Shown: piece by piece, positions 52,013 to 54,943 of the stretch
How the letters are laid out: each line of letters begins with the position of its first letter
How positions within the stretch are numbered: position 1 is the stretch's first letter
NCBI RefSeq assembly: GCF_014356525.2
Contig: NC_052507.1
Location: 46,671,992 to 46,735,991, forward strand
Direction of reading: 5' to 3'
DNA: 64,000 nucleotides
Source of the DNA: Nilaparvata lugens
Taxonomy: Eukaryota; Arthropoda; Insecta; Hemiptera; Delphacidae
Notes under the pieces: model-generated
The model's database searches: none
What the model was told of the DNA's origin: nothing
What the model saw: the letters and a program-made list of their open reading frames with translations, nothing else
Translations under genes and position numbers: made by a program

Positions 52013-52090
52013 AGAATGCAATATCAGAAAATGGAATCATCAACGTCTCAGAAACACGGACCAATAGTTTTCATCATGTTATTGCATTCT
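52013..52090 (-). ncRNA. U18: U18 box C/D snoRNA copy 8 (intron 5)
   Basis: Best copy. Ten-base perfect terminal stem AGAATGCAAT/ATTGCATTCT; box C ATGATGA (52071-52077), guide ATTGGTCCGTGTTT, D' CTGA (52048-52051), C' TTGATGA (52037-52043), D CTGA (52024-52027). The guide pairs with 28S AAACACGGACCAA. The fifth base upstream of D' faces an A, matching the known 2'-O-methylated A guided by vertebrate U18. U18 is encoded in RPL4 introns in vertebrates. Confidence 0.95.
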
Positions 52091-52190
52091 GAAGAATTTC
52101 CAGATCGCGAGTTTGAATGCACACCATTAAACAAAATTTGAAATGATCATCTCACAAACGGTTATACTGATTATATTTTTATTTTTTCAG

Positions 52191-52270
52191 AGAATGCAAT
52201 ATCAGAAAGATGGAATCATCAACGTCTCAGTAACACGGACCAATATTTTTCATCATGGAAATGCATTTCT
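52191..52270 (-). ncRNA. U18: U18 box C/D snoRNA copy 7 (intron 5)
   Basis: Stem around AATGCA/TGCATT, box C ATGATGA, guide ATTGGTCCGTGTTA, D' CTGA, C' TTGATGA, D CTGA. All boxes canonical. Confidence 0.9.
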
Positions 52271-52420
52271 CTAAGTGAAACAAAATGAATGATCAAATGC
52301 TACAGAAAAGTGTATTTAAATAATTCATTTATGCAATTTGATAAGCAATAATTGAAGGTTAAATAATCTATGGAATAGAAATTATTCTTTCTGATAAAGG
52401 AATCATAAAAGTTCTAATTT

Positions 52421-52498
52421 AGAATGCACAATCAGAAAATAGAATCATCAACATCTCAGAAACACGGACCAACAATTTTCATCACTCAAGTGCATTCC
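52421..52498 (-). ncRNA. U18: U18 box C/D snoRNA copy 6 (intron 5)
   Basis: Stem GAATGCAC/GTGCATTC, box C GTGATGA, guide TTGGTCCGTGTTT, D' CTGA, C' TTGATGA, D CTGA. Looks functional. Confidence 0.92.
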
Positions 52499-52730
52499 TG
52501 AATCCCTGAACTTCAAAAACACTTTATGTTATATCTAATAGAATATGATTTTTCTTTTGTCAACGGAAGCGAGTATTATAAGAAGCATTCTAGCAACTAA
52601 TTCTAAAATAGATAAATGTGTAACAAATCAACAAAAACAGTTACTGATCAGGAATATTATCAGTATAAATTTCTACAAATTGTGAACTTGATGAGGAAAT
52701 CTTACTAAGGATCAAGGTACAGTTAAACTA

Positions 52731-52806
52731 AAATGCATTATCAGAAAATGGAATCATCAACATCTCAGAAACACGGACCAATTATTTTCATCATTCGAAT
52801 GCATTT
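52731..52806 (-). ncRNA. U18: U18 box C/D snoRNA copy 5 (intron 5)
   Basis: Nine-base perfect terminal stem AAATGCATT/AATGCATTT, box C ATGATGA, guide ATTGGTCCGTGTTT, D' CTGA, C' TTGATGA, D CTGA. Looks fully functional. Confidence 0.92.
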
Positions 52807-52938
52807 AAGGCAAATTTAAAATTTTACAATTCAGAATAAAAAATGACCACCGACATTAATGGTATTTAATAAAATGACGAAAGTATTTTTTCAATGTAAC
52901 AACTATTTATGAAGTGAAGGTAAATTTATAAACAAGAA

Positions 52939-53014
52939 AGAATGCAAAATCAGAAATTGGAATCATCAACATCTCAGTAACACGGACCAATGTTTTTCAT
53001 CATGTTAATGCAGC
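52939..53014 (-). ncRNA. U18: U18 box C/D snoRNA copy 4 (intron 5)
   Basis: ATGATGA, guide ATTGGTCCGTGTTA, CTGA, TTGATGA, CTGA. All boxes canonical; the terminal stem is short. Confidence 0.87.
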
Positions 53015-53173
53015 GAATATTACATAGTTTATAATGGTCTTATGAGATATAGTTGTAATAGGCTACACATATTTTCTTAACCCGGATTATCTCCTTTGTA
53101 TTATTAAAAGCCTGGCAAGTGATTTACTCTACATTAATGTATATAAACATGTAATTATTACAAGATTAACTAA

Positions 53174-53303
53174 AAATGTACCAGACGGAATAACTTTAAT
53201 ATTCATAAGAGAACATCAAAGGAATAAAATCTGGAAATTTTATGTAGCGAACACAAAAAGTGGCAGCTCAATAATAAAGTGACACAGAGTGCGGTTCGCA
53301 TGA
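53174..53303 (-). ncRNA. H/ACA snoRNA copy 2 (intron 5)
   Basis: Lower stem GCGAAC/GTTCGC, upper stem GTGTCA/TGCCAC, H box ACATAA, second hairpin CCAGA/TCTGG (one flanking G:C change), then ACA plus TTT. Located about 180 nt downstream of exon 5, ahead of the five U18 copies. Confidence 0.83.
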
Positions 53304-53480
53304 ATATAGAGTACTTGAACACTTCTTGCACTCATGATAGCTAAAATCCCAAAAGTATCATTGCTCCAGTTGCAAAATTCAACAATTTCAATGAGTATCA
53401 ATTTTTATAACATACTAGTTACTGGAGAATGTGTGAAGGATAGAGAATTCTATTAATAGAATATGACGTCATAGACATAC

Positions 53481-53579
53481 CTGATCACGGTTATAGATGA
53501 TCAATGGTCCTCTACGCTGGATGCGACGGCGGTTACGCATTTTACCCTTGCCAGCTCTGAATCGGCGGCTCTTGTATAC
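53481..53579 (-). CDS. RpL4: RpL4 exon 5
   Basis: 99 nt, 33 codons: VYKSRRFRAGKGKMRNRRR, IQRRGPLIIYNRDQ. Very basic rRNA-binding segment, strongly conserved. Phase 0 at both ends; donor GTATGT. Confidence 0.97.
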
Positions 53580-53789
53580 CTAAAAAAATCGATTAAAAAT
53601 ATTTTATTCATATTCTGTTCAATAACCTATTTAAAAGTGGTAGGTATTCCAGTAGAATTCTATAATCTCTATTCCTTATGAAGATTCGTTAAATTCAGAT
53701 CCAATTAGATACTTTCAAAGCTAACTGTATCTCTGAACTTCTTGAATTCAGAAAGGAGGATTCTTTTGTGTAATGACAATTTTAATTAC

Positions 53790-53914
53790 CTTCTGAATGT
53801 CATTCCAAGCCTTGATTCGGTGAAGGAAGATGGTGGCTTGCTTGGTTTTGTTGTATTCTTGGATCTTATCGCTGACAACCAAGGGAAGTTCTGGCACATC
53901 CTGAACCATGTGGC
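53790..53914 (-). CDS. RpL4: RpL4 exon 4
   Basis: 125 nt: HMVQDVPELPLVVSDKIQEY, KTKQATIFLHRIKAWNDIQK. Begins in phase 1 and ends in phase 0; donor GTAATT. Confidence 0.97.
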
Positions 53915-54207
53915 CTGTAACGGAAAATATAAAGAAAATCGATAAAAAATATGAAAGAACTCTTTTTGAAACACCATGATCGGGATAAAAATAAAGTTGA
54001 TCAATATGTTTATGATGCATTCCTTTGTAAACTTACAAGAGCATCGGACTTCAAATTCAATTTTTGGCGGATGGAAAACGATTTCTCTATGAGAACTGCA
54101 ATTATCAAACACAATCGAGTGGCTCTCAAAAGAGCAAGAACATGAGAATACAATTAGAGCTGAAATCACTCTTAGAACAAAATCTAATCGCACTAAGATG
54201 GCTTCAA

Positions 54208-54284
54208 ATAATGCACATCAGAAACTGGAATCATCAACATTTCAGTAATACGGACCAAAGCTTTGCATCATGTAAATGCATTTT
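54208..54284 (-). ncRNA. U18: U18 box C/D snoRNA copy 3 (intron 3)
   Basis: Stem AAATGCA/TGCATT, box C ATGATGC (last base changed), guide TTTGGTCCGTATTA (one mismatch to 28S besides the D'-adjacent base), D' CTGA, C' TTGATGA, D CTGA. Altered box C and guide suggest relaxed function. It lies about 290 nt upstream of the 3' splice site. Confidence 0.78.
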
Positions 54285-54412
54285 TGTTCATGTTGAAATT
54301 TGGAGAATCAAAGGAAATGACTAAGTACAATATTACGCCAAAATCAAAAATCTAATATATTTATCTAAACTTGATTGAATTAAAATATGCGTTGATGCTG
54401 TAAAATAGCATC

Positions 54413-54544
54413 ATATGTACCAGACTGAATAACTTCAATATTCATAAGAGAACAGGCAAAGGAATATAATCTGGAAGTTTGATGTAGCGAACACAAAAAG
54501 TGGCAACTCAATAAGCAAGTGACACAGAGTGCGGTCCGCAAATA
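54413..54544 (-). ncRNA. H/ACA snoRNA copy 1 (intron 3)
   Basis: First hairpin with lower stem GCGGACC.../GTTCGC, H box ACATCA, second hairpin with lower stem CCAGA/TCTGG, then ACA followed by three bases (TAT). Same family as 53174-53303. Would guide pseudouridylation; target not identified. Confidence 0.82.
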
Positions 54545-54673
54545 GACATGAAGTAGTATACACTTTTAAAGTAGATATTAATAATGTGTCAAAGAATATT
54601 TTATATTAAGAAAAATTACTATTCAACTTCAATCAAATAAATTTTTAAAAAATAAATAAAGTTCTAGACACTC

Positions 54674-54748
54674 AAATGCACTATCAGAAGAATGGATCAT
54701 CAACATCTCAGAAACACGGACCAATGATATCATCATTTAAAAGCATCT
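54674..54748 (-). ncRNA. U18: U18 box C/D snoRNA copy 2 (intron 3)
   Basis: ATGATGA, guide TTGGTCCGTGTTT before D' CTGA, TTGATGA, then CTGA and AGTGCATTTG. The guide is intact; the terminal stem is reduced to about ATGC/GCAT. Confidence 0.85.
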
Positions 54749-54868
54749 AATTGGCTAGTCAATATTGAGTATCTTGAAAATTTTGAGTCAAAGTGATTGA
54801 ATAACTAACAAGAAAGCATGAAATTAATAGTGTTCCCATATGTTACAGTTCCAATAGAATTTTTTCAG

Positions 54869-54943
54869 AGAAAGCATAATCAGAAAAATGGAATCATCAA
54901 CATCTCAGCAAAATGGACCAATAGTTTTCATCATTTAATATTC
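54869..54943 (-). ncRNA. U18: U18 box C/D snoRNA copy 1 (intron 3), degenerate
   Basis: Box C ATGATGA, D' CTGA, C' TTGATGA and D CTGA are all present, but the guide reads TTGGTCCATTTTG instead of TTGGTCCGTGTTT. Three mismatches fall next to the modification site, and the terminal stem is weak. Probably decaying. Confidence 0.75.

What the first reader, a model, noticed from the sequence alone, without database searches (positions are those of the whole stretch)
52013..54943. Eight-copy U18 snoRNA array in RpL4 introns 3 and 5
Each unit has RTGATGA, D' CTGA, TTGATGA and D CTGA in order, most with a terminal stem, and a guide complementary to 28S AAACACGGACCAA. Vertebrate U18 sits in RPL4 introns, so host and guest have stayed together. 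Eight copies, with five in one intron, exceeds the one-per-intron pattern of vertebrates. A gene for a large-subunit protein would thus deliver many copies of a guide for the same subunit's rRNA. Copy number and clustering may be undescribed for this lineage.
Basis: partly seen in the sequence, partly recalled or inferred. Interest (0 to 1): 0.82.

Follow-up and report, generated by a model that had tools for sequence, protein, structure and literature searches.

The report
Twelve snoRNA copies inside insect RpL4
Two introns of a planthopper ribosomal-protein gene hold eight copies of one known rRNA-methylation guide and four copies of a pseudouridylation guide, a real but largely explainable case of guide-RNA genes multiplying inside a busy host gene.

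Summary
Eight box C/D units lie on the minus strand, in the sense of their host RpL4 (uL4): three in a 1.5-kb intron, five in a 5.3-kb intron. Rfam names all eight U18/SNORD18 at E<=0.026; 3 of 8 reach the curated cut-off. The box pattern appears in none of 60 simulated windows. The guides are not uniform: 6 of 8 pair 12-13 nt with a recalled 28S target; 54218 is weakened, 54880 pairs only 7 nt and has largely lost its terminal stem.

Two are SNORA28/psi18S-841-like, below cut-off; two share their 3' guide but have a changed 5' pocket and no Rfam match. A 1-kb intron piece with four U18 units also sits on another contig, 98.2% identical, partly decayed.

Best reading: cis-amplified guide snoRNAs released from introns. 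U18 in RPL4 and intronic clusters are known; the mixed 8+4 count is unusual. Expression, other insects and full genome copy number were not tested.

The parts
54880..54934 (-). U18-like C/D unit 1 (intron 3); guide degraded (7-nt helix), terminal stem largely lost; probably a pseudogene or orphan
   Evidence: (snoU18 E 0.012)
54684..54736 (-). U18 C/D unit 2 (intron 3), 13-nt guide helix
   Evidence: (SNORD18 E 1.5e-4)
54413..54540 (-). H/ACA unit type B, SNORA28-like (intron 3)
   Evidence: SNORA28 35.0 bits, E 0.0027, below cut-off 65; z -2.16, 6 of 200 shuffles fold as well
54218..54271 (-). U18 C/D unit 3 (intron 3), box C ATGATGC, guide mismatches at positions 1 and 4
   Evidence: (snoU18 E 0.026)
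53175..53300 (-). H/ACA unit type B, psi18S-841-like (intron 5)
   Evidence: snopsi18S-841 34.6 bits, E 0.0029, below cut-off 50; z -6.51
52950..53003 (-). U18 C/D unit 4 (intron 5), 12-nt guide helix
   Evidence: (SNORD18 43.1 bits, over cut-off 41)
52741..52794 (-). U18 C/D unit 5 (intron 5), 13-nt guide helix
   Evidence: (snoU18 54.2 bits, over cut-off 47)
52432..52485 (-). U18 C/D unit 6 (intron 5), 13-nt guide helix
   Evidence: (snoU18 44 bits, E 3.4e-4, below cut-off 47)
52202..52256 (-). U18 C/D unit 7 (intron 5), 12-nt guide helix
   Evidence: (SNORD18 E 4.3e-4, below cut-off)
52024..52077 (-). U18 C/D unit 8 (intron 5), 13-nt guide helix, long terminal stem
   Evidence: (SNORD18 43.3 bits, over cut-off 41)
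49470..49600 (-). H/ACA unit type A (intron 5): 3' guide kept, 5' pocket changed
   Evidence: z -3.12; no Rfam match at E<=1
49002..49130 (-). H/ACA unit type A (intron 5): 3' guide kept, 5' pocket changed
   Evidence: z -3.79; no Rfam match at E<=1
47570..47610 (-). 3'-end fragment resembling a type A H/ACA unit (intron 6), not a full unit
   Evidence: by eye; fold no better than shuffles (109 of 200 fold as well); not matched by model R2
53915..55387 (-). RpL4 intron 3 (1473 nt, GT...AG)
48211..53480 (-). RpL4 intron 5 (5270 nt, GT...AG)
47141..57900 (-). RpL4 (uL4) host gene, span of the six exons found; first exon and C-terminal exon(s) not located
   Evidence: PDB uL4 E 1.6e-175; 97% identical to a Laodelphax striatellus protein

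Best explanation
Introns 3 and 5 of planthopper RpL4 are a cluster of guide snoRNA genes that multiplied in place. The U18 C/D snoRNA (six full-guide copies, one weakened, one decayed) is inferred to guide 2'-O-methylation of the 28S adenosine that is Am1313 in human. Two H/ACA copies are inferred to guide pseudouridylation of the two 18S sites of SNORA28; two derived copies keep only the second site. All would be cut from the spliced RpL4 introns; terminal stems on most U18 copies would help each RNP form far from the branch point, and inner copies must be separated by an endonuclease. Shown: anatomy, Rfam kinship, host, copy number in the window. Inferred: transcription, processing, modification, benefit of dosage.
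For: Box order and kinship; 8 against 0 in 60 random windows; units alike but 8 spacers unrelated; terminal stem kept with changes on both sides at 4 of 11 pairs; same strand and introns of RpL4; guide position 5 faces an A and pairs with it in 8 of 8 (recalled target); four H/ACA units with hinge and ACA boxes and two hairpins; pockets fitting recalled 18S, 5+7 in 2 of 2 type B and 6-7 plus 5-8 in 4 of 4, reached by 16-19 of 2000 and 0-7 of 2000 shuffled arm pairs; chicken ACA28 is given two 18S sites (PMC2653536 passages); U18 sites Am1313/Am660/Am647 in human/Arabidopsis/yeast (PMC3511168 passage).
Against: No RNA data. 5 of 8 U18 units and 4 of 4 H/ACA units miss Rfam cut-offs; none of the 9 genome matches passed. 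54880 has a poor guide and little stem. Single folds of U18 units are not special (z -1.40 to +1.23; expected for C/D RNAs). rRNA targets were recalled, not read from this genome, and pocket arms were placed by hand. The stem control uses only 8 related rows.
Confidence: 0.85

Rival explanations
1. Only one or two copies are active; the others are decaying duplicates kept by chance in long introns.
For: 54880 and 54218 have damaged guides and, with 54684, the longest branches; a further H/ACA survives only as a 3' end; the copy on the other contig has lost one box C and one guide letter, and its U18 cores differ as often (4 of 217) as the rest (14 of 826).
Against: Six of eight guides and all eight D and D' boxes are intact although spacers share no similarity; terminal stems vary in letters but mostly keep pairing.
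Confidence: 0.3
2. The cluster acts mainly on its host: RNP-bound introns tune RpL4 splicing, or intron pieces flanked by snoRNAs persist as sno-lncRNAs.
For: Two snoRNAs in one intron can yield sno-lncRNAs, and SNORD2 can act on its own intron (PMC11028025 passages); intron 5 holds eight snoRNAs over 5.3 kb.
Against: The rRNA guides are among the best kept parts of the units; no data on intron persistence.
Confidence: 0.1
3. Assembly artefact: repeated contig pieces inflate the count.
For: The assembly has 6870 contigs and holds a second near-identical stretch.
Against: The units are only 62-87% identical to a reference unit over 82 nt with unrelated spacers, so they are not repeated reads; the second stretch lies in a 77.6-Mb contig with different flanks, and no RpL4 exon matched in the 26 kb fetched.
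Confidence: 0.03

Closest known systems
SNORD18/U18 in RPL4 (vertebrates)
   Same: Same snoRNA family, same host gene, same predicted 28S site; in chicken three isoforms in RPL4 introns 2, 5, 6 (PMC2653536 passage).
   Different: Eight copies, five in one intron, with H/ACA units among them.
SNORA28 / psi18S-841 (RF00400, RF00545)
   Same: Type B units match below cut-off; both pockets fit two 18S sites, as chicken ACA28 is given two 18S sites.
   Different: Chicken hosts are EIF5 and CCT6A, here RpL4; type A units have a different 5' pocket and no Rfam match.
Intronic snoRNA clusters of Drosophila (Huang 2004, seen only as a reference title)
   Same: Several snoRNAs in one intron.
   Different: Here both classes lie interleaved in a ribosomal-protein gene; I could not read that paper, so how far it differs is open.
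cis- and trans-duplicated snoRNA paralogs (PMC2653536 passages)
   Same: Copies within one gene, plus one piece moved elsewhere.
   Different: The moved piece carries four units and part of an H/ACA at once.

Membership tests
Box C/D snoRNA, U18 (RF00093/RF01159) | C, D', C', D boxes in order | tested here: met
   7 of 8 strict; 8 of 8 with box C ATGATGC allowed
Box C/D snoRNA, U18 (RF00093/RF01159) | Covariance-model score over curated cut-off | tested here: inconclusive
   3 of 8 over cut-off; other 5 of 8 at E 1.5e-4 to 0.026; 0 of 9 matches over cut-off
Box C/D snoRNA, U18 (RF00093/RF01159) | D' guide pairing 28S with A at position 5 | tested here: met
   12-13 nt in 6 of 8; weakened in 54218, 7 nt in 54880 (target letters recalled)
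Box C/D snoRNA, U18 (RF00093/RF01159) | Expressed small RNA bound to fibrillarin | not testable with these tools
   no RNA data
H/ACA snoRNA, SNORA28/psi18S-841 | Two hairpins, hinge ANANNA between, ACA after the second | tested here: met
   4 of 4 by sequence and fold; the distance of ACA to the true 3' end is unknown without RNA
H/ACA snoRNA, SNORA28/psi18S-841 | Rfam score over cut-off | tested here: not met
   type B 35.0 (cut-off 65) and 34.6 (cut-off 50); type A no match at E<=1
H/ACA snoRNA, SNORA28/psi18S-841 | 5' pocket for 18S U815 and 3' pocket for 18S U866 (human numbers recalled) | tested here: inconclusive
   5' pocket fits in 2 of 4 (type B), 3' pocket in 4 of 4 (hand-placed arms, target letters recalled; shuffled-arm control)
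Intronic snoRNA of a ribosomal-protein gene | Sense strand, inside GT-AG introns of an RP gene | tested here: met

The most novel reading that the evidence does not exclude
RpL4 intron 5 works as a poly-snoRNA precursor: eight C/D and H/ACA RNPs assemble on one 5.3-kb intron, protect it as snoRNA-ended long RNAs, and are released by an endonuclease that uses their terminal stems; the type A H/ACA copies have gained a new 5' target.
Probability: 0.15. Interest if true: 0.65.

Novelty: new member of a known kind. Interest (0 to 1): 0.36.

Why it matters
U18 sits in RPL4 in chicken and here in an insect: either a host-guest link kept since early animals or a repeated arrival. A broad survey found that intronic positions of snoRNAs are not ancestral to eukaryotes (PMC3511168 abstract and passages), so the age of this link is worth dating. 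The cluster is also a natural case for asking how many snoRNAs can leave one intron, since trimming from the two ends alone cannot free the inner ones.

Tried and rejected
Genome-wide copy count: only one search of the whole genome was answered (snoU18 family; 67 of 687,088 first-look candidates scored, so a lower bound; 0 of 14 control genomes rang). It gave 9 matches, none over the cut-off: 5 in the window (intron 5) and 4 on contig C5; it did not list the three intron-3 units, so other copies may exist. The intended DNA and pattern searches, and the search for this species' own 28S, did not complete. Hence the target of the type A 5' pocket is open; it does not fit the recalled 18S stretch (score 3, below nearly all shuffled arms).

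The C5 copy: I looked for a mechanism. A 12-letter direct repeat (TAAAATATTCAT) stands about 80 nt left of the copied piece and at its right edge (by eye); too weak in AT-rich DNA to call a target-site duplication.

Further families in the rest of the gene: at E<=1 only one weak miRNA hit in 46.0-50.5 kb and one weak sRNA hit in 55.0-59.5 kb. SNORD74, SNORD51, SNORD126 and TtnuCD18 hits overlap U18 units, lie below their cut-offs and were rejected; a SNORA77 hit overlaps an H/ACA unit. The 12-row unit tree has 0 of 9 inner branches well supported, so the order of duplication is unresolved.
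Full report
What is there. The window belongs to a 1.085-Gb genome. The host gene is ribosomal protein L4: six exons joined give a 361-residue protein that matches uL4 of solved ribosomes (E 1.6e-175) and is 97% identical to a Laodelphax striatellus protein. The gene runs on the minus strand. Intron 3 (53915-55387, 1473 nt) and intron 5 (48211-53480, 5270 nt) have GT...AG ends. The numbering assumes one first exon that I did not locate.

The eight C/D units. A strict pattern for C, D', C' and D boxes finds 7 of 8; the eighth has box C ATGATGC. 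Allowing this, the window has 8 on the minus strand and none on the plus strand, and 60 simulated windows have none (the pattern was written after seeing the units). In the whole-window Rfam scan 3 of 8 pass the curated score; in a 7-kb scan all 8 match snoU18 or SNORD18 at E 3.6e-6 to 0.026. A model built from the eight finds no further unit in the window (next window hit E 4.1). Mean column identity is 82%, while eight spacers show no match to each other: only the snoRNA parts are held alike.

Guides. Against the recalled 28S stretch, 4 of 8 units pair 13 nt and 2 of 8 pair 12 nt; 54218 has mismatches at positions 1 and 4, leaving nine Watson-Crick pairs that a wobble and one more pair lengthen to 11; 54880 has mismatches at positions 1, 4 and 6 and a 7-nt helix. 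In 8 of 8 the fifth nucleotide upstream of box D' faces an A, the methylated one by the box D+5 rule (recalled rule). U18 guides Am1313 in human, Am660 in Arabidopsis and Am647 in yeast (PMC3511168, passage seen) and is assigned 28S-A-1263 in chicken (PMC2653536, passage seen); that the planthopper site corresponds to these is recalled, not tested.

Terminal stem. An 11-pair stem outside boxes C and D is paired in 72.4% of 87 cells; sliding the partner gives 39.8-55.2%. Four pairs have changes on both sides, for instance column 12 with 74 as AU, CG, UA and UG. Shuffles reach the five measures in 2 to 17 of 500. With only eight related rows this is support, not proof. Minimum-energy folds of whole units are not special, z -1.40 to +1.23.

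A repeat search showed four further copies between and beside the U18 units. They align over 132 columns, have a hinge ANANNA and an ACA after the second hairpin (motifs read by eye), and fold into two hairpins with z -3.79, -3.12, -6.51 and -2.16 against shuffles; for the last, 6 of 200 shuffles did as well. A model built from the four finds just these four in the window, plus a truncated one on C5 (E 0.016). Type B (53175, 54413) resembles snopsi18S-841 and SNORA28, below cut-off. With recalled 18S stretches and hand-placed arms, its 5' pocket pairs 5+7 at GAAAAAA[U]UAGAGUG, and the 3' pocket of 4 of 4 pairs 6-7 plus 5-8 at GGAAUAA[U]GGAAUAGG. Shuffled arms allowed to slide reach these scores in 16 and 19 of 2000 (5') and 0, 7, 0 and 0 of 2000 (3'). 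Chicken ACA28 is also assigned two 18S sites, 775 by its 5' pocket and 824 by its 3' pocket (PMC2653536, passage seen). Type A (49002, 49470) keeps the 3' pocket but its 5' pocket does not fit that site, and Rfam has no match at E<=1. A fragment with only the 3' end lies at 47570 in the next intron.

A piece on another contig. The one answered whole-genome search put four more units on contig C5 (77.6 Mb). Fetching it showed 1044 aligned nt at 98.2% identity to window 52178-53220: four U18 units and the 3' part of one H/ACA unit, with unrelated flanks and no RpL4 exon match in the 26 kb fetched. The window has the complete H/ACA unit, so the C5 piece is most simply the derived one. Its copy of unit 52432 has lost box C (GTGATGA to GTGATAA) and its copy of 52741 has a guide change; the other two keep boxes and guide. 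Substitutions are as frequent inside U18 cores (4 of 217) as outside (14 of 826), so nothing shows that the moved units are under constraint. Two of the four reach Rfam cut-offs; one was split between two fetched pieces and could not score whole.

How it most likely works. Distances to the 3' splice site run from about 300 to about 4960 nt. Animals mostly keep one snoRNA per intron; the usual route is debranching and trimming from both ends, and two snoRNAs in one intron can leave a snoRNA-ended long RNA (PMC11028025, introduction part 1 of 2 and passages). A splicing-independent route with an extended external stem is reported for U74 (PMC12205218, passage seen). With eight snoRNPs on intron 5, trimming from the ends cannot free the inner ones, so an internal cut is needed; the terminal stems are the natural mark for each U18 unit. 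This step is inference.

Against this reading. No RNA evidence exists here. One U18 unit is probably dead and one weakened. All four H/ACA units and five of eight U18 units miss curated cut-offs. Target rRNA letters were recalled. Other insects could not be searched. [quoted passage not shown] introns of 27 cytoplasmic ribosomal-protein genes host snoRNAs there (PMC2246290, passage seen). So the kind is known; the copy number and the mixing are the news.

Verdict. Observation confirmed with corrections; interpretation partly supported. New member of a known kind, interest 0.36. That I found it nowhere in print rests on capped listings only: searches (20 of 143; 15 of 506; 15 of 6,614; 5 of 5; 12 of 168; 1 of 1), and on passages of two planthopper papers.

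Noticed in passing
window 49002-49130 and 49470-49600: Type A H/ACA copies share the 3' guide with the SNORA28-like copies but carry a changed 5' pocket and match no Rfam family; possible new pseudouridylation target.
   Followed up: partly
G000 contig C5, 65866933-65867976 (L009 end, L010 start): A 1-kb piece of RpL4 intron 5 with four U18 units moved to another contig, 98.2% identical, with one box C lost.
   Followed up: yes
window 51828-51991 and 49783-49819: Short motif close to TGACGACTSTGCAAC repeated about every 70 nt (by eye), with an 81% inverted copy 2.1 kb away; perhaps a mobile-element remnant.
   Followed up: no
window 59728-60642, minus strand: Open stretches resembling a reverse transcriptase of a non-LTR retroelement (by eye).
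   Followed up: no
window 49295-49364: Imperfect inverted repeat inside intron 5, with a chance-level miRNA match (E 0.82).
   Followed up: no
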